From positions 744,001-808,000 of the forward strand of contig JACJID010000005.1 in NCBI GenBank assembly GCA_014138725.1: 64,000 nt of DNA. Direction: 5' to 3'. The translations under genes were made by a program, and so were the position numbers. Positions 5,559 through 58,191 of this stretch are shown piece by piece (the stretch's first letter is position 1; each line of letters begins with the position of its first letter). The notes beneath the pieces were generated by a model. It was given only the letters and a program-made list of their open reading frames with translations. It had not been told where the DNA came from and did not search any database. This DNA comes from Kutzneria viridogrisea. GTDB lineage: Bacteria; Actinomycetota; Actinomycetes; Mycobacteriales; Pseudonocardiaceae.

Positions 5559-8069
5559 TCACTGGCAGGAGGCGTCGGCACCGCTCACGGTGGACACGGC
5601 GGCGGCCTGCGGCTGCCCGAGGCTCTGCGGGGTGGTGCCCTCCTTGGGTGCCACCACGCTGCCGTTGAACTCGGGACCGATCACCAGCGCCAGCGCACCC
5701 GCCATGGACGGGTCCAGCTGAACCTTCGCACTGGGCACCGCGGCGGCCAGCGTGCGCGCCTGCGCCTCGCGGCCCGCCGAGTACCTGATCACAGTCTGGT
5801 CCACCTTGTCCGGGGAGGCGTCCACCCACACCGGCTGGAAGCCCTGCTGCTTGAGCGCGTCCGCCGTGTTGGAGGCGATCTTCGCCTTGGTGTTGCCCCC
5901 GTTGAGGACCTGGATCTTCATCGTCTTCGGGTCCACCAGCGGGCCACTGCCCAGCTGGGTGGCCGAGGTCGCGCCGTCGGGCAGCGGGTCCCCGTTGATC
6001 ACCGCGGTGAACAGGGCCTTGGTCGCGGCCGATGCGGCCGAGGCGGGCGCGCTGGTGAACAGCACCTGTTCCGGGGACACGCCCTGTAGGGACTGGCCCA
6101 GCGTCAGCAACTGGTCCACGCCCACGTTCTCCCCGCTGGCCGACCGGGTCACGCTGGAGATCACGTTGTTCAGCTTGGTTGGGTCCAGCAGCACCTGGTT
6201 GTGCAGTGCGGTGCGCAGCAGCGCGGCCATGAACCGCTGCTGGCGCTGGATCTGCCCGGCCTCGGGCGAGGCGTCCCCGGCGACGTTGCGGGCCTTCACG
6301 AACTTGACGGCCACGTCCCCGGTCACGCCCTGGGGCCCCGCCTTGGGCAGCAGTGGACCCAGCACCCCGTCGGTGACCGGCGCCTTGGCGCACAGCTCCA
6401 CCGAGCCGATGGCGTCCACCATGTTCTTGAAGCCCTCGGAGTCCAGGGTCATGAAGTGGTTGACCAGCAGCCCGGACTCCTGCTGCACCAGCTTGGTCAC
6501 GCACTGCGGACCGGCCGCGGCGTAGGCGGCGGCGAGCTTGCCCGAACCGCACGCGGGATCAGGGACTTCCGTGCTGCCCGGAATCGACACGAAGACAATC
6601 CGCTTGCGGTTCGCGGGCACGTGCGCGACCAGCACCGTGTCCGAACCGACCAACAGGAAGTTGTCGTCCCCGTGCTGCTTGTCCGCGGCGACGATCGCCG
6701 ACGAACCGGTGTCCAGCGCGTCGACCGGCTTGATCTGGCCGTCCCAGTGCTTGATCGCACCCCAGGCGATGCCGCAGGCGATCAGCACGATGGCCGCCGC
6801 CACGATCGCCGCGATCTTGATCGCCAGGCCGATCATGCGGCGCTTGTGCCGCCTGCGCTCGATCTCCTCGGGCTCGAGGTCGAACTCCGGGTCCTCCTCC
6901 TGGTCCACCGGCTCCGGTGGGGCCTCGGGCGGTCCCTGCTCGGTGTCGATCCACGGCATGTACTTCTTCTGCCGGGTCTTGCGCTGGCGCTCCTCGGCGG
7001 CCATCTCGTCGTGCACCGCCGAGAACCTGGCCAGGGTCTGGTCCACCTTGCGCCTGCGCTGGACCTCCTCGCCGATCGGCTCCATCTCGGTGGTCAGCGC
7101 GGCGGGCTCGATCTCGTGCCTGCGCTCGGGGCGCGGCGCGGCCTCCTGCTCCGGCGCGTCCTGCTCGAGGACCGGCTGCTCCACGTCCTCGCCCTGCGGG
7201 GTGGGCTGCTCGGTCTCGGCGGCCAGGCGCATCCGCACGCTGTCGGGCACCGGCCTTGGCGGCACCGGTGGGCGGCCGTTGGGCACCGGTCGTGAGCCGG
7301 TGGCTTCGCCTGGCCTGGGGGCGGGCCTGCGGATACTTGCCTCGCCGGGGCGTGGCGGCATGGCCCGGCGGCCAGTGCTCTCACCAGGCGGCACCTGGGG
7401 GCTGCCGCCCAGCATGGGACGTGAGCCGGTGGCCTCGCCGGGCGGCGGCACCGGCGGGCGGCCGTTCGGTACGGGTCGTGAGCCGGTGGCTTCGCCTGGC
7501 CTGGGGGCGGGCCTGCGGATACTTGCCTCGCCGGGGCGTGGCGGCATGGCCCGGCGGCCAGTGCTCTCACCAGGCGGCTGCGGGCGGCCGTTGGGCACGG
7601 GGCGCGAGCCGGTGGCCTCACCCGGGGGCGGCATGGGGGGACGGGCGTTGGGCGCAGCGGCGGCCTCGCGCCTGGCCCGGCGGCCGGTGGGCTGCGGGTT
7701 GACCGGGGGTAACGGCCGCTGGCCGGTGGGCGGCGCGGGACGCTGCGCCCTCGGCGAGGCCACGGGCTGCTGCGGTGCGGCCGGGGGTGGTTGCGGGGCC
7801 CGGCGCTGCGGTGCGGCCTCGGGCGGGGCCTGCGAGACCGGCGGCTGCGCCACGGGGGGCTGTGGCGCGGGAGGAACCGGTCGCGGCAGGTTCGGGCGCG
7901 AGCCCGTGTGCCGTTGGACCAGGTCGGAGACGCTCAGTCCCCCGGACGCCTCCATCGACCGGCGACGGCGGCCCGTGGGGCGGTCCCCACCCTGCCGCTC
8001 GCGGTCGTAGTCGGGGGCTTCTGCGGGACCCTCGGGGCCGCTACCGCCACGGCGGTGGTTGTCGGGCAC
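5559..8069 (-). CDS. LytR-CpsA-Psr (LCP) family protein with long proline-rich N-terminus and LytR_C domain
   Basis: An 836-residue membrane protein. LCP enzymes attach glycopolymers to peptidoglycan. The GTG at 8069 is preferred because AAGGGAG lies a few bases upstream; an upstream in-frame GTG exists at 8087. Residues 1 to about 300 form a cytoplasmic Pro/Arg-rich region with PRPGEATGSRPVPNGRP-type repeats, followed by an acidic region, one membrane helix at about 412-434, an extracytoplasmic LCP domain, and a C-terminal LytR_C domain from about residue 713. The usual SIPRDT motif reads SIPGST, so the conserved Arg-Asp pair is missing; the later RQQR motif is present. It may be a non-catalytic LCP member. 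Confidence 0.85.
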   Translation of the reverse strand: MPDNHRRGGSGPEGPAEAPDYDRERQGGDRPTGRRRRSMEASGGLSVSDLVQRHTGSRPNLPRPVPPAPQPPVAQPPVSQAPPEAAPQRRAPQPPPAAPQQPVASPRAQRPAPPTGQRPLPPVNPQPTGRRARREAAAAPNARPPMPPPGEATGSRPVPNGRPQPPGESTGRRAMPPRPGEASIRRPAPRPGEATGSRPVPNGRPPVPPPGEATGSRPMLGGSPQVPPGESTGRRAMPPRPGEASIRRPAPRPGEATGSRPVPNGRPPVPPRPVPDSVRMRLAAETEQPTPQGEDVEQPVLEQDAPEQEAAPRPERRHEIEPAALTTEMEPIGEEVQRRRKVDQTLARFSAVHDEMAAEERQRKTRQKKYMPWIDTEQGPPEAPPEPVDQEEDPEFDLEPEEIERRRHKRRMIGLAIKIAAIVAAAIVLIACGIAWGAIKHWDGQIKPVDALDTGSSAIVAADKQHGDDNFLLVGSDTVLVAHVPANRKRIVFVSIPGSTEVPDPACGSGKLAAAYAAAGPQCVTKLVQQESGLLVNHFMTLDSEGFKNMVDAIGSVELCAKAPVTDGVLGPLLPKAGPQGVTGDVAVKFVKARNVAGDASPEAGQIQRQQRFMAALLRTALHNQVLLDPTKLNNVISSVTRSASGENVGVDQLLTLGQSLQGVSPEQVLFTSAPASAASAATKALFTAVINGDPLPDGATSATQLGSGPLVDPKTMKIQVLNGGNTKAKIASNTADALKQQGFQPVWVDASPDKVDQTVIRYSAGREAQARTLAAAVPSAKVQLDPSMAGALALVIGPEFNGSVVAPKEGTTPQSLGQPQAAAVSTVSGADASCQ
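7288..7578 (-). repeat. Perfect 105-bp direct repeat within the LCP linker
   Basis: Copies at 7288-7392 and 7474-7578 are identical, offset by 186 bp (62 codons). The duplicated protein stretch includes GESTGRRAMPP and EASIRRPAPRPGEATGSRP. Identity at the DNA level, including silent positions, implies recent tandem duplication or gene conversion. Confidence 0.95.
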
Positions 8070-30866: not shown

Positions 30867-33755
30867 GTGCCACGGGAGGTGTGCATGGAGGGCCCCGGAC
30901 CATGGCTGGGCGACCCGGCGCCACCGGCTGCTGTGGGCAGGTGGCGGCCCCTGGTGGGCAGGGCCGCCGAGCTCGGCAAGCTGGAACAGGCGGCGGCGCG
31001 GGCATTCCGCTTGGTCGAACTCGTCGGTGAACCGGGTATCGGCAAGACCCGGTTGCTGGCGGAGTTCGTCGCGCGGGTGCGCCGCACCGGTCGGCTGGTG
31101 CTGTGGGGCAGGGCGGCGGCGGTCGAGCGGGACGTGCCGTTCGGGCCGGTGGTCGACGCCTTGGACGACTACATCGACGAGCGCGCCGCTGGTGGGTTGA
31201 GCCAGGCCGAGCTGCGGCTGCTGACCGGGGTGTTCCCCGCGCTGGCCGATGGCTCACGCGGCGAGCGGGCGGCTAGCGGTGCGGTGCGGTTCCGGCAGTA
31301 CCGGGCGGTGCGCGCCCTGCTGCGGTCCCTGGCCAGGCCGCCGGGGCTGACCATCGTGCTCGACGACCTGCACTGGGCCGACGAGCCCACCATCGAGCTG
31401 ATCGACTACCTGGTGCGGCACCCGCTGCCCGACCCGGTGCTGATCGTGCTGGCCTACCGGCCCGCCCAGGTGTCCTCCCGGCTGACCACCGCGCTGGCCG
31501 ACGCCCCGCAGGGCCAGGTCTGCCGGGTCGACCTCGCGCCGTTCACCGAGGCCGAGGCCGACCAGCTGCTCGCCGCCGAGCCGAGCCGGACCACCCGCCG
31601 TCGGCTGCACCGTCGCAGCGGCGGCAACCCGTTCTACCTGGACGCACTGGCCCAGATGGTCGGCGCGGGCGAGGACCCGCTGCCGGAACTGCCCAAGTCG
31701 GTGCACGCGGCGCTGGCCGCCGAGCTGTTCGGGCTCGCCGCACCGGCGTCGCTGGTCGCGCAGTCCGCTGCGGTCGCGGGCACCGAGTTCGAGCCCGCGC
31801 TGGTCGCCTGCGTGGCCGAGATCGGCGAGGACCAGGTCCTCGCGGCCCTCGACGAGCTGGTCGCCAGGGACCTCGTGCGCTCGGTGGGCTGGTCGGGCCG
31901 GTTCCGGTTCCGCCACGAACTGGTCCGGCACGTGGCGTACGGCTCGGCCGCGGCGGGGTGGCGGCACGGCGCGCACACCCGGCTGGCCGAGTACCTCGCC
32001 TCGGTCGGCGCCTCCCAGGTCCAGCGCGCCGACCACGTGCTGCGTTCGGCGAAGTTCGGCGACACCGAGGCCGTGCAGACCCTGGTCGGCGCCGCGCGCA
32101 CGGCCATGAGCCACGCGCCCGCGTCCTCGGTCACCTGGTACGAGGCCGCTTTGTCCCTGCTGTCCGACGGGGACGAGGAACTGCCGCCACGCGTGCAGTT
32201 GCAGCAGGAACTCGCGCTGAGCCAGGGCATCAGCGGGCGGCTCGACCAGAGCCGCGAGACCCTGCGGGAGGTGCTGCGCGTCCTGCCGCCCGACCAGGTG
32301 TCCGACCGCGCGCGGGCCGCGTCGTTCTGCGCGTTCCTGGACTACCTGCAGGGTGAGCACGAACTGGCACGGCACCTGCTCAACGCCGAGCTGGGCAGGC
32401 AGCAGGACCCGCACTCCGCCGAGGCCACACCGCTGCGCATGCAGCTGGCGATGGACCTGCTGCTCACCGGTGGCGGCGAGGACGTCCGCGGGTTGCTGGC
32501 CGATCTGCCCGAGGGCGGTGACGAGGGCTGGACCATCCCGCACTCCACCCTGCTCGCCTTCCAGGAGGCGATCGACGGCAACCGGTTCGCCGCCGCGCAG
32601 CACGTCAAGCACGCGGCCGACCTGCTCGACGTGATCGGTGACGAGGAGTTCCTGTCCTGGTTGCCCGCGATCTACTCGCTGTGCTGGACCGAGATCGCCA
32701 CCGGGCGCATCGCCAGCGGCCTGCGGCACTTCACCCGCGCCGTGGACCTGGCCAGGGCCACCGGCCGGGTCTACCTGCTGGCGGCGCTGCTGTGCGGGCA
32801 GGCCTGCGCGTACGGGCTGCGTGGTCGCATCGCCGAGGGCCAAGACGCGCTGGACGAGGCGCTCGACGTGGCCAGGAGCTTCGGCTACCGCAGCCACGGC
32901 CTGCTGGCCGGGATCGCCTGCGCGCTGAGCAGTTGGCGCGGCGAACACGGTGCCGCGCTGCGCTGGGGCAACCAGGCCGTCGCCGAGACCGACCCGAGCC
33001 GCCCGTGGGCCAGGGCGCTGGCCCACCACCACCTGCTGCTGGCCCACGTGCACGCCAGCAACCCCGCTGCCTGCGCCGCGCTGGTCGCGGCCTGCGGTGG
33101 ACCTGACCTGCCCGAGGCCGACCCGTTCACCAGGCTCAACTGTTACTACCTGCTCGCTGCCTGCGCGGCGGGCCAGGGCGACGCCGAGCTCGCGCGCGAC
33201 TGGGCGCGGCGGGCCGAGGAGATCGCCGACCCCAGGCTCGAACTGGACGTGCTGTTCGTGGAACTGGCCGGGGCGCACGCCGCCAGCGTCGAGGACCCGG
33301 GCCGGGCCGCCGCGCTGGCCCTGCGCGCCGCCGAGTCCGCCGAGGCCTGCGGGCTCGCGCTCCACCAGGGGGCGGCGTTGCTGCTGGCAGGCACGTGCCT
33401 GGCCAAGGCCGCGCGGCGGGACCAGGCGATCTGCCAGCTCCGTGCCGCGGCCGACCTGTTCAGCGGCTGTGGTGCGTCCGACCTGCACAGCGCCGCCGTC
33501 CGCGAGCAGCGCAGGCTCGGCATCCGCGTGCCGACCACCGGCTCCCGGTCCAAGCAGCGGCCGCACGCCTTGTCCCCGCGTGAGCAAGACGTGGCCGAAC
33601 TTGTGTGCTCGGGGCTGACCAACCAGCAGATCGCGGAAAAACTCGTGCTGAGCGTGCGGACTGTCGAGACCCATCTGACTCACATCTTCGCCAAGCTGGG
33701 GGTGACCAACCGGGCTGGGGTGGCGGGAGTACTGGCCAACCAGTCCACTGATTGA
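30867..33755 (+). CDS. Large ATP-binding LuxR-family (LAL) regulator
   Basis: A 962-residue regulator of the MalT/LAL type. An AAA-like NTPase domain opens the protein: Walker A VGEPGIGKTRLL at about residue 54 and Walker B LTIVLDDLHWADEP at about 165. A long helical TPR-like sensor region follows (about 400-860), and a LuxR helix-turn-helix closes it (LSPREQDVAELVCSG, then NQQIAEKLVLSVRTVETHL). The GTG at 30867 has GAGGAGGA 6 bases upstream; an ATG at 30885 is an alternative. These proteins usually activate a nearby operon. The next gene, a modified hydrolase 37 bp downstream, is the obvious candidate partner. Confidence 0.9.
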   Translation: MPREVCMEGPGPWLGDPAPPAAVGRWRPLVGRAAELGKLEQAAARAFRLVELVGEPGIGKTRLLAEFVARVRRTGRLVLWGRAAAVERDVPFGPVVDALDDYIDERAAGGLSQAELRLLTGVFPALADGSRGERAASGAVRFRQYRAVRALLRSLARPPGLTIVLDDLHWADEPTIELIDYLVRHPLPDPVLIVLAYRPAQVSSRLTTALADAPQGQVCRVDLAPFTEAEADQLLAAEPSRTTRRRLHRRSGGNPFYLDALAQMVGAGEDPLPELPKSVHAALAAELFGLAAPASLVAQSAAVAGTEFEPALVACVAEIGEDQVLAALDELVARDLVRSVGWSGRFRFRHELVRHVAYGSAAAGWRHGAHTRLAEYLASVGASQVQRADHVLRSAKFGDTEAVQTLVGAARTAMSHAPASSVTWYEAALSLLSDGDEELPPRVQLQQELALSQGISGRLDQSRETLREVLRVLPPDQVSDRARAASFCAFLDYLQGEHELARHLLNAELGRQQDPHSAEATPLRMQLAMDLLLTGGGEDVRGLLADLPEGGDEGWTIPHSTLLAFQEAIDGNRFAAAQHVKHAADLLDVIGDEEFLSWLPAIYSLCWTEIATGRIASGLRHFTRAVDLARATGRVYLLAALLCGQACAYGLRGRIAEGQDALDEALDVARSFGYRSHGLLAGIACALSSWRGEHGAALRWGNQAVAETDPSRPWARALAHHHLLLAHVHASNPAACAALVAACGGPDLPEADPFTRLNCYYLLAACAAGQGDAELARDWARRAEEIADPRLELDVLFVELAGAHAASVEDPGRAAALALRAAESAEACGLALHQGAALLLAGTCLAKAARRDQAICQLRAAADLFSGCGASDLHSAAVREQRRLGIRVPTTGSRSKQRPHALSPREQDVAELVCSGLTNQQIAEKLVLSVRTVETHLTHIFAKLGVTNRAGVAGVLANQSTD

Positions 33756-33792
33756 ACTGCCGACGGCCCGCGGCGGTAACTACCGAGGTCAG

Positions 33793-34647
33793 ATGGAGGT
33801 GGGGACCGTGCGCGACGGACTTGCCGACGAACCGGGCGCCGTGCTGTGGCTGGGACCGACCGGCCGTGACCGGGTGTTGCTCCTGCACGACTTGGCGGCC
33901 AGTGGGTCGACGAGCTGGCTGGGGCAACTCAGCCTGGCCGACGAGGTGAACCTGGGCGTGGTGGACCGGCCGGGCTACGCGATGACCGATCCGGTGTCGG
34001 CCGCGGGCTGGACCGCCGACACCACGATGCTGGTCGGCCTGCTCGACCGGGACGGGCCGTGTCACCTCGTGGCGCACGGCAACGCCACCGCCGGGGCGCT
34101 GATGGCCGCCCAGTTGGCGCCGTCCCTGGTGCGGTCCCTCGTGCTGGTCGAGCCGCCGCTGTTCCAGCTCGCCCAGGGCAGTTCACTGGTCGAGGACCTG
34201 TCAGGTGCCCTGGTCGAGTTGCACCGCCACGCGGAGGACCTCACCGGTGCCGAGTACCTGAAGGAGTACTTGCTCACCGTGGGCTACCTCGAACCGCCGC
34301 GGCTGAGTGTTCCGCAGCGCTGCGCTGAGGCCGCGAGGGCCGAGCGCCCCGCGTGCCAGGCACCGATCGACCTGGACACGCTGGCGCGCACCTCGGTGTC
34401 GGTCACCGTGGTCGTCGGCGGCCGACAGGGCGGCTGGCACGACCCGGGCGAGCGCACGGTGTTCGGTGGGGCGGTGTGGCGTACGGCGGAGGTGCTGGCC
34501 GGGGCCATGGACGGGTGGCTGGTGCCGATCGATTCCGCCGGTCATGAGGTGCAGCGCAGGACGGGCGCGTTCAACCAGGTGCTGTGCCAGCACCTGGAGG
34601 CATGGTGGGGGAGCCACCAGCACGGACATGTGGCTGCGGGGACCTGA
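33793..34647 (+). CDS. Alpha/beta-hydrolase-fold protein lacking the nucleophile
   Basis: A 284-residue alpha/beta-hydrolase-like protein: RVLLLHDLAASGS at the oxyanion strand, VVDRPGYAMTD, and a terminal catalytic-type His in DSAGHEVQRR. The nucleophile elbow, normally GHSxGG, reads AHGNAT, placing Gly96 where Ser should be. It is therefore unlikely to be a hydrolase and may be a ligand-binding protein or sensor, perhaps working with the LuxR regulator immediately upstream. A 19-bp repeat array begins right after its stop. Confidence 0.8.
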   Translation: MEVGTVRDGLADEPGAVLWLGPTGRDRVLLLHDLAASGSTSWLGQLSLADEVNLGVVDRPGYAMTDPVSAAGWTADTTMLVGLLDRDGPCHLVAHGNATAGALMAAQLAPSLVRSLVLVEPPLFQLAQGSSLVEDLSGALVELHRHAEDLTGAEYLKEYLLTVGYLEPPRLSVPQRCAEAARAERPACQAPIDLDTLARTSVSVTVVVGGRQGGWHDPGERTVFGGAVWRTAEVLAGAMDGWLVPIDSAGHEVQRRTGAFNQVLCQHLEAWWGSHQHGHVAAGT

Positions 34648-34695
34648 GCCGGGCGTTGTCGCGGCGTACGTTCTCCGCATTCGCGGATCTGATCC

Positions 34696-34885
34696 GCTGG
34701 CGTGGTGGAGCAGCGCTGCTGCGTATCTGGACTGCTGAGACCTAGCTGCACGGCTGCGGCGTTGCTCGTGGGCTGCGGCGCTGCTGCATTGCTGCGGCGC
34801 TGCTCGTGTGCTGCCGCGTTGCTCCAACGCCGCTGCGTTGCTGCATTGCTGCGGCGTTGCTGCACCGCGTCGGCGGTGCTGCACC
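34696..34885 (+). repeat. 19-bp tandem repeat array A
   Basis: Ten consecutive 19-mers, the best seven at 34753-34885 (GCTGCGGCGTTGCTCGTGG, GCTGCGGCGCTGCTGCATT, GCTGCGGCGTTGCTGCACC and so on). The consensus is close to GCYGCNGCGYTGCTGCACC. Units at the left edge are decayed. The period is not a multiple of three, so the array is not coding. The remainder of the intergenic stretch 34886-35297 shows no gene; a TTGACA near 35186 is only a possible promoter element for the next gene. Confidence 0.85.
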
Positions 34886-35297
34886 GTCGCAGTGGTTGTG
34901 ATGGTGTGAACCGACCGCAGGTGTTCGTCTGTGGTGACCGCACTCGTCGACGACCGCCGTCACCTGCTGACTACCGGTCTCGCGCGCTACACCGAATCCG
35001 GCGTGGTCGGCCGCCCCTCCCTCGCGTCGGCCAGGAAGGGACGGGTTGTGCTCGCGAGTCTCGTAAGCTCCTTCGGCGGCTGCCTTTCCGCCCTCAAGTG
35101 AGTGTAAAAACGGGCAATCGATCCGGCATGCAAAGCTGCGACCTGCGGGAAACATTCTTCGGCGGTACCTGGCAACAGCGTTGCTTGACAGTGATCCAGA
35201 TCATGTCTGGGAACCCCTTCGTGGCCTCGGACATCTCTGTTTATGAGTACGCAAACTCACCGGCAAATACGCGGGCACCATTTCGAGGGGGCTGATT

Positions 35298-35990
35298 ATG
35301 AACATCAACGCGATGGCGATCCGGCGGGCCGCGATGGCGATTGCCGCGGTGGCGGCGGTGGGTGCGCTGGGGGCGTGCTCGATCGGCCAGTCGGGCAACG
35401 CCACGCCGGCGCCGCAGGGTTCCGGCGGCGCCGGGGGCGGGGTCAGCGCGGCGTCGAACGACGGGGCCCGCCAGGGCACGGACGCGAACGGCGGGACTCG
35501 CCAGGGCACGGACGCCAAGGGTGCCCCGGGCGCCAACGGCAGGGGCATCGCCAACGCCGGCGGTCACCCGAGCTGCACGAACCTGAAGGTGACGCAGTCG
35601 ACGCCGGACCTGATCAACGGCAGCACCACGCAGTGGAAGCTCCCGATCATGCTGACCAACCACAGCGGCGTGCCCTGCACCGTGCAGGGCTTCCCCGGCG
35701 TCCGCCTCCAGGGCGCGGACGGCACCACCTGGGACCTGGTTCGCACCAACGCGACCGGCACCCCGGTGCTGCTCGGCCCCGGCGAGCACGCCACGGCCGA
35801 CCTCACCTACTCCACCATCGGTGACGGTGGCGGTCCCGCCTGGCACGTCTCCAGCATGGCCGTGACGCCGCCCAACAGCACCAATACCCAGACCCTGCCC
35901 TGGGCCGACAGCGTCGACCTGGTCAAGCAGCACGCCGCCACCCACCCTGGGACTTACATCGGCCCGGCCCGCGCCAGCACCGCCGGATGA
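35298..35990 (+). CDS. DUF4232 lipoprotein
   Basis: A 230-residue lipoprotein: a basic start, a hydrophobic segment and the lipobox LGAC with Cys27. An Ala/Gly/Asn linker contains a short repeat (ARQGTDANGGTRQGTDAK), followed by a DUF4232 domain from about residue 90 (CTNLKVTQSTP, TNHSGVPCTVQGFPGVRLQ), with a probable disulfide. GAGGGGG precedes the ATG. Function unknown; these are abundant actinomycete surface proteins. It sits between the two 19-bp repeat arrays and is followed by a 22-bp perfect hairpin. Confidence 0.88.
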   Translation: MNINAMAIRRAAMAIAAVAAVGALGACSIGQSGNATPAPQGSGGAGGGVSAASNDGARQGTDANGGTRQGTDAKGAPGANGRGIANAGGHPSCTNLKVTQSTPDLINGSTTQWKLPIMLTNHSGVPCTVQGFPGVRLQGADGTTWDLVRTNATGTPVLLGPGEHATADLTYSTIGDGGGPAWHVSSMAVTPPNSTNTQTLPWADSVDLVKQHAATHPGTYIGPARASTAG

Positions 35991-36012
35991 CGACCGGGCC
36001 GCAGCGAAACGA

Positions 36013-36061
36013 ATAGCGAAAATGTCGTGGGAATCAGAAATTCCCACGACATTTTCGCTAT
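36013..36061. terminator. Strong bidirectional hairpin
   Basis: Perfect 22-nt arms (left arm begins ATAGCGAAAATGTCG) separated by a 5-nt loop, CAGAA. The stem is AT-rich compared with its surroundings. It lies between the DUF4232 gene and a small minus-strand frame. Confidence 0.88.
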
Positions 36062-36074
36062 CCGGGGTTCAGTC

Positions 36075-36182
36075 CTATGTGCCGACCTCGTCGAGATGCG
36101 GCAGGTAGTGGTCGAGCCGTTCTCGTTTCGTGCGTAGACAGCGGAGGTTCTCGGTCAGGCCGCGGTGGCGTTGAGCGCTCAT
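36075..36182 (-). CDS. Possible small basic protein, 35 aa
   Basis: A 35-codon frame preceded by AAGGAG at 8 bases from its ATG and ended 14 bp before the strong hairpin at 36013. The product (MSAQRHRGLTENLRCLRTK..., ending HLDEVGT) is highly charged and probably one amphipathic helix. No family is recognised. The ribosome-binding site and the convergent terminator are the support; coding bias cannot be judged at this length. Confidence 0.4.
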   Translation of the reverse strand: MSAQRHRGLTENLRCLRTKRERLDHYLPHLDEVGT

Positions 36183-36240
36183 GAGCGTGCTCCTTCTCTG
36201 GGTTCGGCGGCTGGGCAGCAAACATCACGCGGACGAAACC

Positions 36241-36392
36241 GCCGCAGCGCTCCTGCACCGCTGCAGCGTTGCTGCTCTGCCGTCGCACTTCTGCACCGCA
36301 GCGGCGCTGCTGGTCCGCCGCCGCCGAGCTCGTCCGCCGCCGCCATGCTGCACCGCTGTCGCACAGCTCGACGGGTGCTGCGAAACTCGGTG
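36241..36392 (+). repeat. 19-bp tandem repeat array B
   Basis: Eight consecutive 19-mers in the same orientation as array A (GCCGCAGCGCTCCTGCACC, GCTGCAGCGTTGCTGCTCT, GCCGCCGCCATGCTGCACC and others). The unit consensus matches array A; units 7 and 8 are decayed. The array ends 72 bp before the sigma-factor start, inside its promoter region. Confidence 0.82.
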
Positions 36393-36464
36393 CAACCAGC
36401 TCACGAGATCAGCGCATGTACATCTCGTAGGCGCGAGCAGTGGAGCACGGAGGCAACTCAGCAG

Positions 36465-36995
36465 GTGACCGGTCGCGGCTCTCCGTGGGATGGGGAGTTC
36501 ACCCAGTACTTCGCCGCGCGTGCGCACTCGCTGCGTGCCACGGCTTATCTGCTGTGCGGTGACTGGCACCGCGCGGAGGACATCACGCAGACCGCCCTGA
36601 CCAAGATGTATCTGATCTGGCCCAGGTTGGCGCGGCACGACTCGCTGGACGCCTACGTGCGCAAGGTCGTCGTCCGGACGTTCCTCGCCGAGAACCGGCG
36701 GATGCGCTGGCGGCGCGAGCAGCTCACCGGGGAGCTGCCGGACTTCGCGGTCACTGACGGCGAGCCGGAGCACAGCATGGTGGTCCGCTCGGCGCTGGCC
36801 GCGGTGCCGCCGAGGCAGCGCGCGGTGTTGGTGCTGCGCTACTGGAACGACCTCGGCGTGGAGGAGACCGCGGCGGCGCTGGGCTGCTCGGCGGGCACGG
36901 TCAAGAGCCAGGCCGCCCGTGGACTGGACGCGTTGCGCAAGCGACTCGGACCCCACTTCGCCGACCTGGGCGTGTTCGGACCGGAAGGGAGGTGA
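36465..36995 (+). CDS. ECF sigma factor (SigE family)
   Basis: A 176-residue RNA polymerase sigma-70 factor of the extracytoplasmic type. Region 2 contains LRATAYLLCGDWHRAEDITQTALTK and region 4 contains VPPRQRAVLVLRYWNDLGVEETAAALG with TVKSQAARGLDALRK. GTG at 36465 (GGAGG 11 bases upstream) fits the family N-terminus; the frame is open further upstream only because it crosses array B. The stop overlaps the next gene (GTGA), which encodes a membrane protein that may act as its anti-sigma partner. Confidence 0.9.
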   Translation: MTGRGSPWDGEFTQYFAARAHSLRATAYLLCGDWHRAEDITQTALTKMYLIWPRLARHDSLDAYVRKVVVRTFLAENRRMRWRREQLTGELPDFAVTDGEPEHSMVVRSALAAVPPRQRAVLVLRYWNDLGVEETAAALGCSAGTVKSQAARGLDALRKRLGPHFADLGVFGPEGR

Positions 36996-37393
36996 CGCAG
37001 GTGCAGGACGACGAGGCGCGAGCACTGCTCGCGAGCACCGATCCCGGTCAGGGACCGCCCTTGCTGATCACAGCGGAGGGCATCGCCCAGCGCGGAGCCC
37101 GCATCCGCCGCCGACGCAGGCAGACCGCGGCGGCGGGCACCGCCCTCGGTGTCTGCGCCCTGCTCATCGGCCTGCTGCTCGCGCTCGGCACCCACCCCGC
37201 GCAGCAACTGCCGCCGGCGAACCCGGGACCGAGCAGCCCGCAGCCGGTCAGCACCACAGCAACCTCGCGCCCCTCCACGACCCGCGCACCCTCGAGCACG
37301 GCGACATCAGCGCAGTCCACGGCACCCACGTCCACGCCCTCGACAACACAGAGTGGCGCGGCTGGCACTTCGACGACAACAGTCACCCGATAG
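36992..37393 (+). CDS. Small single-span membrane protein, possible anti-sigma partner
   Basis: A 133-residue protein with a cytoplasmic N-terminus (1-45) ending in RGARIRRRRRQ, one membrane helix (about 47-67) and a Ser/Thr/Pro-rich exported tail. It overlaps the sigma gene by 4 bp. The arrangement is typical of sigma/anti-sigma pairs, but no zinc-binding HxxxCxxC anti-sigma motif is present, so the role is inferred from position alone. Confidence 0.75.
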   Translation: MTQVQDDEARALLASTDPGQGPPLLITAEGIAQRGARIRRRRRQTAAAGTALGVCALLIGLLLALGTHPAQQLPPANPGPSSPQPVSTTATSRPSTTRAPSSTATSAQSTAPTSTPSTTQSGAAGTSTTTVTR

Positions 37394-37411
37394 GACGACG
37401 GCGGCGGACTA

Positions 37412-37441
37412 GACGATCGGCCGTAGCACCGTCCGATCGTC
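37412..37441 (+). terminator. Inverted repeat after the sigma operon
   Basis: Perfect 9-nt arms GACGATCGG / CCGATCGTC with a 12-nt loop, 19 bp after the membrane-protein stop. Possibly a weak terminator. Confidence 0.45.
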
Positions 37442-37520
37442 GGTCCGGTGCAGCCGGTAGCCTCACCGCCCGTCCGGGTTTTCACCCGACTGAAGGACCT
37501 TTCCCAGAGGCTGGAGTTCG

Positions 37521-39266
37521 GTGAGACGGGTCGCGATCGTGTCCGCGAGTGTCGGTGCCGGCCATGACGGAGCGGCCGGTGAACTGGCCCGCCGCCTGCG
37601 TGGCCAGGGCTACCAGGTGGACGTGCACGACTTCCTCGACCTGCTGCCTGGACGCGTCGGCCGCAGGATGAGCGCGGCCTACCTGCGCCAACTGCAGGTC
37701 GCCCCGCGCAGTTGGGAGATCCTGCTCAAGCTGCTGGAGTGGTGCCGTCCCCTGGCGGTGTTCGTCTCCCTGCTGTCCGGTCTGGCCTGCCGCAAGATGT
37801 TGCGTGCGCTCGGCCCCGACCTGGACCTGGTCGTATCCACCTACCCGCTGGCGAGCCAGTCGCTGGCCCGGCTCAAGCGCACGGGCCGGTTGGCGGCTCC
37901 GGTGGTCACCTACCTCTGCGACATGTCGGTGCACCGCATGTGGGTCGCCAAGGACGTGGACCTGCACCTGGCACTGCACGAGGTCTCCGAACGCCAGGCC
38001 CGCAGGCTGGGCGCGCGCCGGATCACGGTCACCGGCCCCGCGGTCGCCCCGAACTTCCGGCCCTCACTGGGTGAGGTCGAGCGCAAGGTCGCCCGCAAGC
38101 AGCTCGGCTTGCCCGCGGAGGGGCGGCTCGCCCTGGTGTTCGGCGGTTCCTGGGGTGTCGGCGACATCGAGCAGACCGCGCGCGACATCGCCGACACCGG
38201 TGTCGCCACACCGGTGGTGCTGTGCGGCACCAACAAGGCGCTGCGCGACAAGCTGGCCGCCACGGGGGTGGGCTGCGCACTGGGCTGGGTCGAGGACATG
38301 GCCGTGGCGATGCGGGCCTGCGACGTGGTGGTGCAGAACGCGGGCGGGCTCAGCTCGATGGAGGCGCTGGCCACTGGCCTGCCGGTGATCACCTACCGCT
38401 GCCTGGTCGGTCACGGCAGGACCAACGCGGCGGCGCTGGAGCAGGCCGGGCTGGTGCCGTGGGTGCGGCGCACCGAGGACCTGGGCCGGACGCTGCGGGC
38501 GGTGCTCGACGACGGGGTGGCGGCCAGGCACGCGGCCACCGAGGCCTTCACCGCGGGCACGGACCCGAGCCTGGTGCTCGCGGGCTTGGTGCCCGAGCAG
38601 ACCCCGGTGCCGACCGGCCGCGGGCACCGCAGGCGCCGCCGGGTCGGGGTGGCGGCGGCCTGCCTGGTCGGCGTGGCGTGGCTGGGCACCGTCGGGGTCA
38701 GCATGGCGGTGGCCAGCGGGTTCCAGTCGATCGGCCCGGCGAGCAGGCACAGCGGCGAGGTGTTCTTCCTGGTGGCGGTGGACCAGGACAGGCCGATGCC
38801 GGCCACCGAGATCGACCAGCTGGCGAGGCTGCACGCGGGGGCCGTGGTGAGCGCGCATGTGGTCGACCGGCAGCCGGAGACGGTGCGGGCGCTGGCCAGG
38901 GCCGGGGTGGTGATCGTCAACGCGGCGGGCGGCGCGCCCTACACCACGGGCCTGTTCACCGGCCGCACGGCGATCGGCCAGACGGCGGGCGCGATCACCG
39001 CGACCACCGGGCGCGCGCCCCGGCTGCTGCTCAGCAGCGGTGACGTGGACGCCATCGACGTAGGCATCGTCGCCGCGCACCGGGAACGGATCGTGGTGCC
39101 GACCAACACGATCCCGTGCACGAACTCCCCGCGGCGGCCGGTGCGCGGGGTGGTGCTCATCGAGCAGACCGCGGGCTGCGACCTGGCGAGCGCACTGGAC
39201 GAGCTGTCGCGGCTGGCCGACTACCGGGCGGTGCGCCCGGCCTGGATCGAGGAGCTGACCACGTGA
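37521..39266 (+). CDS. MGDG-synthase-type glycosyltransferase fused to a membrane helix and a deacetylase-like domain
   Basis: A 581-residue fusion. Residues 1-350 are a GT28-type glycosyltransferase of the processive diacylglycerol class (MGDG synthase/UgtP): SASVGAGHDGAAGELARRL at the N-terminus, VVTYLCDMSVHRMWV, and the donor-binding region VQNAGGLSSMEALATGLPVITY. A membrane helix follows (about 375-397, after a RGHRRRRR stop-transfer). The C-terminal 180 residues look like a degenerate polysaccharide-deacetylase barrel (AGAVVSAHVVDRQPETVRALARAGVVI) without metal ligands. It overlaps the true deacetylase gene by 4 bp. Envelope glycolipid or polysaccharide synthesis is likely. Confidence 0.82.
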   Translation: MRRVAIVSASVGAGHDGAAGELARRLRGQGYQVDVHDFLDLLPGRVGRRMSAAYLRQLQVAPRSWEILLKLLEWCRPLAVFVSLLSGLACRKMLRALGPDLDLVVSTYPLASQSLARLKRTGRLAAPVVTYLCDMSVHRMWVAKDVDLHLALHEVSERQARRLGARRITVTGPAVAPNFRPSLGEVERKVARKQLGLPAEGRLALVFGGSWGVGDIEQTARDIADTGVATPVVLCGTNKALRDKLAATGVGCALGWVEDMAVAMRACDVVVQNAGGLSSMEALATGLPVITYRCLVGHGRTNAAALEQAGLVPWVRRTEDLGRTLRAVLDDGVAARHAATEAFTAGTDPSLVLAGLVPEQTPVPTGRGHRRRRRVGVAAACLVGVAWLGTVGVSMAVASGFQSIGPASRHSGEVFFLVAVDQDRPMPATEIDQLARLHAGAVVSAHVVDRQPETVRALARAGVVIVNAAGGAPYTTGLFTGRTAIGQTAGAITATTGRAPRLLLSSGDVDAIDVGIVAAHRERIVVPTNTIPCTNSPRRPVRGVVLIEQTAGCDLASALDELSRLADYRAVRPAWIEELTT

Positions 39267-55186: not shown

Positions 55187-56296
55187 CTAGCGGTAGACGT
55201 GGGCGTCGAGCGCGGCCAGCCCGGCGCCGAGCACCCCGGCGTCGGCTCCGGTCACCGCGCTGGTGATCAGCAGGTTGCGGGAGGCCACGGGCAGGCACCG
55301 CTCGTACAGCACCGAGCGGACCGCGGCCACCAGCGGCTCGGCCCTGGCCAGCGCACCGGCCAGCACCACCGCCTGGGGGTTGGTGAAGTTCACGACCACC
55401 GCGAGCACACCGCCGATGTGCCTGCCGGCCGTGCGCACCAGCGTGGTGGCGTGCGGGTCACCGTCGGCGACCAGGCGGACCACCTGGTCGAGGTCCTCGG
55501 CGCCCAGTTGGCCGAGCAGGGCCGCACCGCTGGCCACGGTCTCTAGGCATCCGGTGTTCCCGCAACTGCACGGTCGTTCACCTGCCTCCGGCACCCGGGT
55601 GTGCGTGATGTCCCCGGCGCACCCGGCGGCGCCCCGGTGCAGACCGCCGTTGACCACCACCCCGCAGCCGATTCCCCGGCCCAGCTTCACCAGTACGAGG
55701 TGGTCCAGGTCCCGGTGCGCGCGGGCGTGCTCGCCGAGTGCCATCAGGTTGGCGTCGTTGTCCGCGAACACCGGCACGTCCAGTTCGGCGGCGAGCAACT
55801 CGCGCACCCGTGCCCCGTGCCAGCCGGGCATCCGGGCCGGCGCCACCACGCGGCCCAGCGGCACGTCCACCGGCCCGGGAACGCCGATGCCCACCGCGCG
55901 CACCGGGCGGTCTCCCGCCACCTCGCGGATCGCCTCGGCAAGCCGACCGATCGTTCGTGCCGGTCCGAGGGCCAGGTCCAACGGGTCCTCCCGCACTTCC
56001 AGCAGCGCGCCGCCGAGGTCGAGCACGCCCAGGCGTGCGTGGTGGCTGCCCAGGTCGACGCCGACCACCACCGCGCCGTTCGAGCACAGCCGCAGCAGTC
56101 GAGGTCGGCGGCCGCCGCTGGACTCGCCCTCCCCGGACTCGGCGACCAGCCCGGCGTCGAGCAGCTCCTGCACCCGCAGCGACACCGTGGACGCGGCCAC
56201 GCCCAGCTCCCTGGCCAGGTCGGCGCGGGACCGCGCGGTGCCCTCAGCCACCAGCCGGAGCACCTGGCCAGCCGAGGTCAGCTCCTCGCTCGCCAT
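55187..56296 (-). CDS. ROK-family transcriptional regulator
   Basis: A 369-residue regulator: an N-terminal winged helix (SRADLARELGVAASTVSLRVQELLDAGL) and a ROK sugar-kinase-like domain with VVGVDLGSHHARLGVLDL, ADNDANLMALGE and the zinc-binding CSCGNTGCLE. The ATP phosphate motif DxGGT reads DLGSH, so it is a sensor without kinase activity. GGAGGTAGTC precedes the ATG. It is divergent from the transporter operon and probably binds the TTCGTTCGA repeats in between. Confidence 0.9.
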   Translation of the reverse strand: MASEELTSAGQVLRLVAEGTARSRADLARELGVAASTVSLRVQELLDAGLVAESGEGESSGGRRPRLLRLCSNGAVVVGVDLGSHHARLGVLDLGGALLEVREDPLDLALGPARTIGRLAEAIREVAGDRPVRAVGIGVPGPVDVPLGRVVAPARMPGWHGARVRELLAAELDVPVFADNDANLMALGEHARAHRDLDHLVLVKLGRGIGCGVVVNGGLHRGAAGCAGDITHTRVPEAGERPCSCGNTGCLETVASGAALLGQLGAEDLDQVVRLVADGDPHATTLVRTAGRHIGGVLAVVVNFTNPQAVVLAGALARAEPLVAAVRSVLYERCLPVASRNLLITSAVTGADAGVLGAGLAALDAHVYR

Positions 56297-56408: not shown

Positions 56409-56445
56409 CCGAGGACACGGCGTCACCTGGAGCGGGGGAGATGCG

Positions 56446-58191
56446 ATGCGGCGTTGGAGATCTGCTGCGGCGTTGTTCTTCTGCTCGCTGCTCGCGGCCT
56501 GCTCCGGCATTGCTCCGGTGACGCGGCTGGGCAGCACCGGCGGCACACCCGTGCGGGGTGGCACGGTGGTGATGGCCCTGCCGCCCGCCGCGACGCCGAA
56601 CTGGATCCTGCCGATCGGCATCCCGGGCTACCTGGCCTCCTACAACTCCGCGATCAGCCGCCTGCTGTTCCAGCCGCTGTACCGCTACCACGAGGTGAAC
56701 GGCTCGCTGGTGCTGGACGAGGCCGCCGACCTGGCCGATCCACCGCGGTACGCCGAGGACGGCCGCACGGTCACGATCCCGCTGCGCCCCGGCCGGAAGT
56801 GGACGAACGGTCGTGCGGTTTCCGCGCGCGACGTTCAGTTCTGGTTCGACCTGATCAAGGCGAACAAGACCCGGTGGGGCGGCTACTCGCCCGGCGCGCT
56901 GCCGGACAACGTGACGGCGCTGGAGGTGGTGGACGAGCACACGGTCCGGTTGCGGCTCGACCGTTCGTACAACCCGGACTGGTTCACCGGCAACCAGCTC
57001 ACCGCGATCGTGCCGATGCCGCAGGCCGAGTGGGACCCGCAGGGCCAGGCACGCACCGAGGACGGGGCCAAGGCCGTGTTCGCCAGGCTCGTCGACCAGG
57101 CGCGCAAGCTCGCCGAGTACGCCACGAATCCACTGTGGAAGGTCGTGGACGGGCCGTGGCTGGTCGAGGAGTTCAGCACGGGCGGCCGGGTGAGCATCGT
57201 GCCCAACCCGAACTACACCGGCGCTGACAAGCCGCACCTGGACAGAGTGGTGTTCGCCCCGTTCACCACCGCCAACTCGGAGTTCACCGTGCTGCGCTCC
57301 GGCGGGGTGGACTACGGCTACGTGCCGCCGTCCACGACCGCACGATCGGACAGTTTCACCGACCTCGGCTACCGGGTCGAGCCCTGGCGGGGCTGGGCGA
57401 TCACCTACGTGGTCTACAACTTCAACAGCCCCACCGCGGGACCGCTGCTGCGCCAGCTCTACCTGCGGCAGGCGATCCAGCACCTGATCAACCAGGACGC
57501 GATCAGCAAGGTGGTCTGGCACGAGGCGGCGACGCCCACGCACGGGCCGGTGCCCGGCGGCAGGACCCCCGACCCCTACCCGTACGACGTGGACCGCGCC
57601 CGCGCCCTGCTCGCCGAGCACGGCTGGCGGGTCGAGGACGGCACCGCCGTGTGCCGCACGCCGCGACTGTGCGGGCCGGGCATCGCGGAGGGCACGCCGT
57701 TGCGGCTGACCCTGTTGTCGCAGAGCGGATCCGTGGAGACGAGCAACATGATGCAGGAGATCAAGTCCTCGCTGGGCCTGGCCGGGATCGACCTGCTCGT
57801 GCGCGAGCAGCCGCTGAACACCGTGCTCAGCAGCACCGCACCGTGCCAGTCGGGCGATCCCGGCTGCGACTGGCAGCTGTCCTTCTTCGGCACCGCGGCG
57901 AGCTGGTACTTCGACGCCGATCCCAGCGGGGAACAGATCTTCGCCACCGGGGCCTCGTCCAACCTGGGCAGCTACTCCGACACCACCACCGACGAGCTGG
58001 TCGGCCAGACCGAGCACTCCGCCGACCCCGCGGCGATCCAGCGCTACAACGACCACGTGGCAAGGGATCTGCCGGTGGCCTGGGTGCCCAACCCGGCCTA
58101 CCAGGTGTCGGTGATCCGCAACGACCTGCGCGGGGTGCGGCAGAACCCGCTGGTGACCCTGGACCCGCAGAACTGGTACTACGTGCGATGA
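56446..58191 (+). CDS. Peptide/nickel ABC transporter substrate-binding lipoprotein (family 5)
   Basis: A 581-residue extracellular solute-binding protein of family 5 (DppA/OppA type). A lipoprotein signal ends in LLAAC (Cys19). Typical segments are ISRLLFQPLYRY, TVTIPLRPGRKWTNGRAVSARDVQFWFDL and LRQLYLRQAIQHLINQDAI. Several additional cysteines (CRTPRLCGPG, CQSGDPGCDW) suggest two disulfides. It is the first gene of a four-gene operon with 4-bp overlaps. One copy of the recurring palindrome lies at 56802 (TNGRA). Confidence 0.93.
   Translation: MRRWRSAAALFFCSLLAACSGIAPVTRLGSTGGTPVRGGTVVMALPPAATPNWILPIGIPGYLASYNSAISRLLFQPLYRYHEVNGSLVLDEAADLADPPRYAEDGRTVTIPLRPGRKWTNGRAVSARDVQFWFDLIKANKTRWGGYSPGALPDNVTALEVVDEHTVRLRLDRSYNPDWFTGNQLTAIVPMPQAEWDPQGQARTEDGAKAVFARLVDQARKLAEYATNPLWKVVDGPWLVEEFSTGGRVSIVPNPNYTGADKPHLDRVVFAPFTTANSEFTVLRSGGVDYGYVPPSTTARSDSFTDLGYRVEPWRGWAITYVVYNFNSPTAGPLLRQLYLRQAIQHLINQDAISKVVWHEAATPTHGPVPGGRTPDPYPYDVDRARALLAEHGWRVEDGTAVCRTPRLCGPGIAEGTPLRLTLLSQSGSVETSNMMQEIKSSLGLAGIDLLVREQPLNTVLSSTAPCQSGDPGCDWQLSFFGTAASWYFDADPSGEQIFATGASSNLGSYSDTTTDELVGQTEHSADPAAIQRYNDHVARDLPVAWVPNPAYQVSVIRNDLRGVRQNPLVTLDPQNWYYVR

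What the first reader, a model, noticed from the sequence alone, without database searches (positions are those of the whole stretch)
34696..36392. Two arrays of a 19-bp repeat bracketing the DUF4232 lipoprotein gene
Array A (34696-34885, about ten units) and array B (36241-36392, eight units) share one 19-bp unit, consensus near GCYGCNGCGYTGCTGCACC, in the same orientation, 1.36 kb apart. Units abut with no spacers and decay toward the edges. Array B lies in the promoter region of an ECF sigma gene, array A behind the serine-less hydrolase. The cassette between them could be excised by recombination. Alternatively the units are binding sites for a repeat-reading regulator. The periodicity is not a multiple of three, so coding constraint does not explain it.
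Basis: seen in the sequence. Interest (0 to 1): 0.7.

Follow-up and report, generated by a model that had tools for sequence, protein, structure and literature searches.

The report
Chromosome stretch patterned with 19-base repeats
The two repeat patches are real and are only the edge of a 155,000-base stretch of this soil bacterium's chromosome in which gaps, and even genes, have been shaped into a mirror-symmetric 19-base pattern, most likely a landing track for a still unknown DNA-binding protein.

Summary
Arrays A and B are diverged tandem arrays of one 19-bp unit. They lie at one end of a ~155-kb domain of this Kutzneria-genus chromosome (0.50-0.65 Mb from dnaA) that holds 14 such lattice runs; 176 kb of flanks hold none. 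Kutzneria sp. CA-103260 (G005) has 14 runs in the syntenic ~133 kb. The syntenic 200 kb of four other Kutzneria species have none.

The lattice is dyad-symmetric (idealised GCWGC-NWN-GCNNNNGC-NWN) in both species, although arrays within a genome resemble each other no more than arrays across species. It also lies inside genes (5 and 4 runs; control 0), including conserved ones whose orthologues lack it. So the repeats arose in place and were not pasted in.

Best explanation: a binding track for a dimeric DNA-binding protein that coats or bridges one chromosomal domain, working like MatP/matS or RacA/ram. The protein is not identified. An EspR-like gene beside the longest array is a candidate, but G005 lacks it there. 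Excision of the A-B cassette is not supported; RNA structure and mobile origin found no support.

The parts
34657..34903 (.). Array A: 19-bp dyad-symmetric lattice, about 13 units, best preserved at 34734-34885; starts about 10 bp after the stop of the hydrolase ORF
   Evidence: lattice score 176.5; maximum in 800 kb of G1-G4 control 27.2
36238..36382 (.). Array B: the same lattice, 7-8 units, about 80 bp upstream of the ECF sigma ORF
   Evidence: score 110.5
56427..56485 (.). Third, weaker lattice run in the window, mostly in the gap between a ROK-family regulator gene and a solute-binding protein gene
   Evidence: score 34.7; one search also reports period 19 at 56437-56475; Pfam. Against: the overlapping contig C9 carries the same place (442582-442618) with score only 26.3, so small assembly differences matter here
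56063..56115 (.). Possible fourth run, inside the ROK-family gene; at the noise ceiling
   Evidence: (score 26.7; control maximum 27.2), so uncertain
33793..34647 (+). Hydrolase-like ORF left of array A (no Pfam match at 0.001); orthologues in G1-G4
35298..35990 (+). DUF4232 lipoprotein gene between A and B; no orthologue in the fetched syntenic regions of G1-G5
   Evidence: PF14016, 1.9e-21
36465..36995 (+). ECF sigma factor gene downstream of array B; no orthologue in the fetched regions of the relatives
   Evidence: Sigma70_r2, Sigma70_r4
37521..39266 (+). Glycosyltransferase-like gene, right flank of the 2.8-kb block absent from G1-G4
   Evidence: NCBIfam matches below the curated cut-offs

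Best explanation
The arrays are sequence-specific DNA tracks. Each 19-bp step is a quasi-palindromic site for a dimeric DNA-binding protein (idealised TGCWGCA flanked by GC pairs). Head-to-tail sites let the protein load cooperatively, as a filament or as bridged clusters. The tracks are confined, with one exception in G005, to one 130-155-kb domain on one side of oriC. They evolved in place in gaps and inside genes under selection for binding, with local tandem duplication lengthening them in gaps. The likely purpose is to give that domain a structure or an anchor (macrodomain-like or centromere-like), not to regulate one gene. Shown: lattice, symmetry, confinement, in-situ origin, cross-species sharing of consensus and of some sites. 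Not found: the protein.
For: Domain: at score 30 or more, G000 has 14 runs in 155 kb and 0 in 176 kb of flanks; G005 has 14 in 134 kb and 0 in 86 kb of flanks; G1-G4 have 0 in 800 kb. Whole-genome scans agree. Symmetry: axis 4.5/14 is the best of 19 axes in 9 of 11 arrays and second in the other 2. In-situ origin: 5 (G000) and 4 (G005) of those runs lie inside called genes, controls 0. In the two best-conserved cases (C9:329895, G005 9182139) the orthologues lack the lattice; in all 8 coding segments studied the array-bearing sequence beat 200 of 200 synonymous recodings when that run set the segment (segments were chosen for high score, so one search is the unbiased control). Not pasted copies: units of different arrays are 0.548 (G000) and 0.496 (G005) identical, across species 0.513. 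Shared sites: 5 of 12 G000 sites lie within 300 bp of a G005 site, 1.1 expected, p=0.003; with wider windows p=0.015-0.039. Ten proteins beside arrays share no theme.
Against: No trans-acting protein was identified; the only gene pair of the domain shared by the two array genomes and missing from the syntenic G1-G4 regions looks metabolic. Four of six other Kutzneria genomes lack arrays in the syntenic block although gene order is the same, and the scan found none in the sixth, G006, so the function is dispensable in the genus. The tree needs at least two gains or two losses. G005 has one outlier locus with two runs (114.1 and 44.9) 594 kb on the other side of dnaA. Single coding segments outside can also score high: 25.5 in G3 at the site of a G005 run, 27.9 and 29.3 elsewhere in G000 and G005. 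No binding, expression or contact data exist.
Confidence: 0.55

Rival explanations
1. One reading: the lattice is the binding track of an EspR-like nucleoid-associated protein. A 146-aa EspR homologue is encoded 7 bp (periodic array) to 31 bp (lattice run) before the longest array (C9:323252-323630).
For: PDB search matches M. tuberculosis EspR structures at 5e-10. The reported EspR motif TTTGC[TC][GA], the almost equal inter- and intragenic distribution, and dimer-of-dimers bridging (PMC3315491, passages) resemble the lattice half-site [CT]TGC[TA][CG] and its placement.
Against: No such gene was found in the G005 domain; G006 has a 78% homologue whose 3.4-kb locus shows no lattice. All 7 genomes hold 2-6 homologues at 1e-5; the listing shows none obviously special to the two array genomes, though no tree was built. 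Motif match is partial.
Confidence: 0.13
2. Ordinary minisatellites made by replication slippage and decaying neutrally.
For: Tandem arrangement; units within an array are more alike (0.50-0.70) than between arrays, so local duplication does occur.
Against: Same dyad-symmetric consensus in many arrays and in two species; confinement to one domain; lattice inside conserved genes. Most unrelated 19-bp repeats found by pattern in other genomes look different: short and near-identical.
Confidence: 0.1
3. A copying process (gene conversion, retro-writing or a mobile repeat) spreads the unit through the domain.
For: Local clustering. One G005 coding patch (in 9182139-9182248) holds a 21-bp stretch identical to part of the array near 9280270, 98 kb away.
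Against: No excess similarity between arrays of one genome over arrays of two genomes; with array A as query, no related DNA in plasmids and one weak 51-bp match in one phage.
Confidence: 0.12
4. Promoter or operator arrays of a local regulon (for B, control of the ECF sigma operon).
For: Array B lies in the gap upstream of the sigma gene.
Against: Arrays fill convergent gaps and gene 3' ends and lie within coding sequence; the flanking genes examined have no shared theme.
Confidence: 0.06
5. Structured RNA encoded by the arrays.
For: Units are quasi-palindromic and GC-rich.
Against: Ten strand folds give z between -1.79 and +0.47 against shuffles; in window 33700-37500 no Rfam family reaches its gathering score.
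Confidence: 0.03
6. Direct repeats A and B allow excision of the cassette between them.
For: Same orientation, 1.36 kb apart.
Against: Relatives lack the whole 2.8-kb block rather than the A-B segment; A and B align at 73% over 106 bp.
Confidence: 0.01

Closest known systems
MatP/matS (E. coli Ter macrodomain)
   Same: A site confined to one chromosomal domain; the abstract shown in the search listing gives a 13-bp target repeated 23 times in 800 kb (PMC3330122).
   Different: matS are, as recalled, single sites; here sites are packed head to tail every 19 bp, up to about 18 in a row, nearer the origin than the terminus, and the protein is unknown.
RacA/ram (B. subtilis chromosome anchor)
   Same: Recalled, not read here (searches gave listings only): a GC-rich inverted repeat clustered in an origin-proximal region of several hundred kb.
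   Different: Recalled ram sites are dispersed; no RacA-like or polar anchor was searched for.
EspR binding loci (Mycobacterium)
   Same: Sites inside and between genes, TTTGC-type half-site, oligomeric bridging (PMC3315491, passages); an EspR-like gene beside the longest array.
   Different: EspR sites are genome-wide in that paper and not described in the passages seen as a fixed-period lattice; no such gene was found in the G005 domain.
ParB/parS and plasmid centromere iterons
   Same: Tandem or clustered palindromic sites that a dimer coats (recalled).
   Different: This genome has ordinary parS-like sites near dnaA (C5:272,965-284,844); the lattice is about 0.5 Mb away and unlike parS.
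Tandem repeats of Borg elements
   Same: Tandem repeats that also affect proteins (PMC9879509, seen only in the search listing).
   Different: Listed as rapidly evolving, independently arising repeats of extrachromosomal elements; here one degenerate consensus is kept across species in a chromosome.

Membership tests
Macrodomain-organiser sites (MatP/matS type) | Sequence motif confined to one chromosomal domain | tested here: met
   G000: all 14 runs of score 30 or more in the sampled DNA lie in the 155-kb domain, and all 50 genome matches below E 0.001. G005: one outlier locus elsewhere
Macrodomain-organiser sites (MatP/matS type) | Palindromic site for a dimer | tested here: met
   Dyad axis best of 19 in 9 of 11 arrays; binding itself not tested
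Macrodomain-organiser sites (MatP/matS type) | Cognate protein binds and changes domain contacts or mobility | not testable with these tools
   Needs ChIP and Hi-C; protein not identified
RacA/ram-type anchor | Origin-proximal location | tested here: met
   Domain 0.50-0.65 Mb (G000) and 0.38-0.52 Mb (G005) from dnaA
RacA/ram-type anchor | RacA-like protein present | not tested
   No search was made for RacA homologues
EspR binding loci | EspR-family protein present | tested here: met
   (5e-10); 2-6 homologues in each of 7 genomes
EspR binding loci | Motif TTTGC[TC][GA] | tested here: inconclusive
   Half-site [CT]TGC[TA][CG] agrees mainly at the TGC core; compared by eye
EspR binding loci | Protein gene and arrays occur together across species | tested here: not met
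   G005 has arrays without the domain gene; G006 has the gene without an array at its locus
ParB/parS | parS consensus (GTTTCACGTGAAAC, recalled) | tested here: not met
   The 5 sites found with up to 1 mismatch lie at C5:272,965-284,844, not in the arrays
Neutral minisatellite | Units related by slippage, no constraint across loci | tested here: not met
   One consensus across loci and species, also inside genes
Mobile or copied repeat | Higher similarity between copies in one genome than between species | tested here: not met
   0.548 and 0.496 within genomes versus 0.513 across; one 21-bp identity points the other way

The most novel reading that the evidence does not exclude
A new chromosome-domain marking system in actinobacteria. 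A 19-bp, mirror-symmetric lattice is written by selection over gaps and genes alike across one 130-155-kb origin-proximal domain, and is read by a dimeric protein that coats or bridges the domain. It is an independently evolved centromere-like or macrodomain-like region with tandem rather than dispersed sites.
Probability: 0.42. Interest if true: 0.85.

Novelty: new variant of a known kind. Interest (0 to 1): 0.72.

Why it matters
Few bacterial systems are known (my recollection) in which a DNA motif marks out one large chromosomal domain. This one can be recognised from sequence alone, leaves its mark in codon choice inside genes, and is present in some species and absent from others with the same gene order. 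That makes a natural comparison for asking what domain-specific DNA coating does for chromosome folding or segregation. It also warns that degenerate tandem repeats which look like junk can be parts of a domain-wide pattern visible only with a periodic model.

Tried and rejected
Excision cassette: rejected by empty sites in G1-G4. Coding repeat: period 19 is not a multiple of 3, and strong arrays fill gaps outside called genes. Structured RNA: folds no better than shuffles, no Rfam family over gathering score in window 33700-37500. Plasmid or phage origin, array A as query: no plasmid match, one weak 51-bp phage match listed under two accessions. Gene pair of the domain shared by G000 and G005 but absent from syntenic G1-G4 regions: a Cys/Met PLP enzyme (Pfam) and a second ORF that I read as CoA-binding from its sequence alone; dropped as reader. 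Gene at the G005 outlier locus: an ORF I read as ureD from its urease neighbours; NCBIfam gave no match. Other genomes: genus scan 2 of 7 at 1e-6; family 3 of 390 at 1e-7 (G000, G005, G269); order 2 of 397 at 1e-7 (G000, G456). The two larger scans used stricter filters that lose weak matches. G269 proved a two-array locus, not a domain, in 380 kb, and G456 a clean slippage array. Pattern scan of genome contigs: 56 stretches, 3 of them Kutzneria sp. CA-103260; the other 53 and the 3 viral ones were judged only from the lag table: mostly near-identical units, a few (for example L147, L181, L200) weaker and not followed up.

Limits: gene calls come from a home-made caller and orthologues from reciprocal BLAST. 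The G4 region holds 3,173 N, and its three period-19 entries behave like N runs. Of the nine coding runs of score 30 or more, two lie in a gene without orthologue in the relatives' regions (C9:365301-367556) and one (G005 9233739) was not compared. The G000 run 410798 lies in a poorly alignable linker where the G005 orthologue also carries the lattice; at G005 9209010 G3 scores 25.5. The run at C5:800427 scores 34.7 in one contig and 26.3 in the overlapping one.

Full report
OBSERVATION. Array A and array B are present as described. Lag-19 identity is 0.66 and 0.63, while the best of 1,233 and 1,234 other placements in the window is 0.41 and 0.44. Tandem Repeats Finder gives period 19 in both, and 38 and 57 in A. 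A first alignment of 83 units gave a consensus with G1C2, G7C8, W11, S13-W14-S15 and W17 as its most fixed features.

ONE DOMAIN, NOT TWO ARRAYS. A DNA search of the own genome found relatives on contig C9. A four-unit, sequence-only model then placed all 50 matches with E below 0.001 in C9:309-421k and C5:778-780k (150 of 30,471 first-look candidates were scored). The ends of C5 and C9 overlap by 19.1 kb at 99.7% identity, so this is one stretch of about 155 kb, from C5:778,657 to C9:309,331. dnaA is at C5:278k, 0.50 Mb from the near edge. Kutzneria sp. CA-103260 (G005; named through contig length and title) has arrays in the collinear stretch 9,164,603-9,297,305, with none in the 100 kb to the left (best score 19.8). 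It lies 0.38-0.52 Mb from its dnaA. G005 also has one outlier locus at 8.186 Mb with runs of 114.1 and 44.9. The right-hand edge is at the same place in both species.

CONTROLS. A symmetric position-weight lattice was trained on G000 noncoding arrays only (54 units; the array at C9:351k left out) and scanned without gaps. At score 30 or more: G000 domain 14 runs, G005 domain 14, syntenic 4 x 200 kb of G1-G4 0, G000 flanks (176 kb) 0, G005 flanks (86 kb) 0. At 25 or more: 21, 16, 3, 0, 0. At 20 or more: 31, 31, 20, 1, 3. The left-out array scores 203. One of the 14 G000 runs (C5:800427) scores only 26.3 in the overlapping contig. Samples taken at weak genome-scan hits outside the domain reach at most 27.9 (G000) and 29.3 (G005). 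Noncoding arrays of periods 10-60 were also listed: period 19 stands out only in G000 and G005.

IT AROSE IN PLACE. Several strong arrays fill a gap from stop codon to the next gene. At four shared sites G005 has gaps of 75-438 bp with lattice; the relatives have 2-44 bp in 10 of the 15 comparisons that could be made, and 113, 113, 251, 1,188 and 7,326 bp in the others, all with best lattice score 14.7 or less. Five G000 and four G005 runs of score 30 or more lie inside called genes, against 0 in the controls. For C9:329,895-329,975, in an oxidoreductase gene (Pfam DAO) with 61-64% local protein identity to five orthologues, the lattice scores 47.6. The orthologues score 7.7-15.4, and 200 synonymous recodings of its own protein reach at most 31.1. 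A gene of G005 that I read as PKS-like from its sequence (9,182,139-9,182,248; 79% local identity to G3) gives 32.5 against 10.1-16.8 in the others, recodings at most 23.1. Two further G000 cases (343869, 410798) lie in poorly conserved protein segments, and at 410798 the G005 orthologue carries the lattice too; at G005 9209010 the G3 orthologue scores 25.5. Choosing top runs biases these recoding tests; the regional counts do not have that bias.

SYMMETRY AND ORIGIN. Reading the unit as bases 1-19, base j mirrors base 9-j (mod 19). This axis is the best of 19 possible in 9 of 11 arrays tested and second in 2. CTC-type and GAG-type units are therefore one site in two orientations. In idealised form the lattice is GCWGC-NWN-GCNNNNGC-NWN. 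Units of different arrays in one genome (0.548, 0.496) are no more alike than units across the two species (0.513), while units within an array are more alike (0.50-0.70). So arrays lengthen by local duplication, and what arrays share is a consensus, not a common copy. Against this stands one 21-bp identity between a G005 coding patch and an array 98 kb away. Five of 12 G000 sites lie within 300 bp of a G005 site (expected 1.1, p=0.003; against random gaps 0.94, none of 2,000); windows of 500-1,000 bp give p=0.015-0.039.

PHYLOGENY. In 23,676 alignment columns G000 is 77% identical to each of five relatives, which are 88-92% identical to each other. The unrooted tree is (G5,(G3,(G2,G4)),(G000,G1)). 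Two gains or two losses are needed. The shared sites favour inheritance with loss (inference). The syntenic block of G006 was not examined.

In the domain, the genes with a counterpart in G005 but none in the syntenic G1-G4 regions are a Cys/Met PLP enzyme and its neighbour. An EspR homologue (146 aa; EspR structures at 5e-10; no Pfam or NCBIfam match at 0.001) stands directly before the longest array. The published EspR motif and bridging behaviour (PMC3315491, passages only) would suit. But it was not found in the G005 domain, and G006 keeps it without an array at that locus.

EXTENT IN NATURE. Genus scan: 2 of 7 genomes (1e-6). Family: 3 of 390 (1e-7), the third (G269) an isolated two-array locus. 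Order: 2 of 397 (1e-7), the second (G456) a clean slippage array. A pattern scan of genome contigs gave 56 stretches, 3 of them Kutzneria; the rest are mostly near-identical repeats. Viral contigs gave 3 of that sort. With array A as query, plasmids gave none and phages one weak match under two accessions.

LITERATURE. A search for Kutzneria with tandem repeat returned one paper, not about such arrays by its title and abstract (listing only). A search with the term 19-bp repeat and four others showed 12 papers, none holding that phrase. I did not search further for a description of such a lattice, so I claim only that these searches did not show one.

READING. The most economical account is a binding track for a dimeric, cooperative DNA-binding protein over one chromosomal domain. 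Domain organisation as its purpose is an inference from confinement, mixed gene context and placement inside genes. It works like a macrodomain or centromere-like site set; it is not shown to belong to any of those families.

Noticed in passing
G000 C5:796531-815621 and C9:446537-427416: The two contig ends overlap by 19.1 kb at 99.7% identity, so the assembly is redundant there and the contigs adjoin.
   Followed up: yes
L043:2960-3850 (C9:309497-310390): A DDE transposase gene sits between two lattice pieces at the right edge of the domain, with apparently truncated ORFs next to it.
   Followed up: partly
L043:16268-16705 (C9:322805-323242): EspR-like gene directly before the longest array; a 78% homologue is in G006 with similar upstream DNA but no array.
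   Followed up: partly
L048:7539-9307 (C9:414076-415844): A Cys/Met PLP enzyme gene and its neighbour are 90.5% and 81% identical to G005 (regional mean 77%) and were not found in the syntenic G1-G4 regions: possible horizontal gain.
   Followed up: partly
L073:1440-1700 and 2700-2880 (G269, another genus): Isolated 19-bp arrays, one drifting into GATCCGC-type units; not a domain.
   Followed up: partly
L090:9713-10487 (G005 8.186 Mb): Strong lattice at the end of and inside an ORF in a urease gene cluster, 594 kb on the other side of dnaA.
   Followed up: partly
window 36010-36064: Inverted repeat just downstream of the lipoprotein gene, probably a terminator (seen; the Rfam match is below gathering score).
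   Followed up: no
window 7258-7633: Two copies of a 186-bp tandem repeat, 90% matches.
   Followed up: no
window 35455-35515: Two copies of a 30-bp repeat inside the lipoprotein gene.
   Followed up: no
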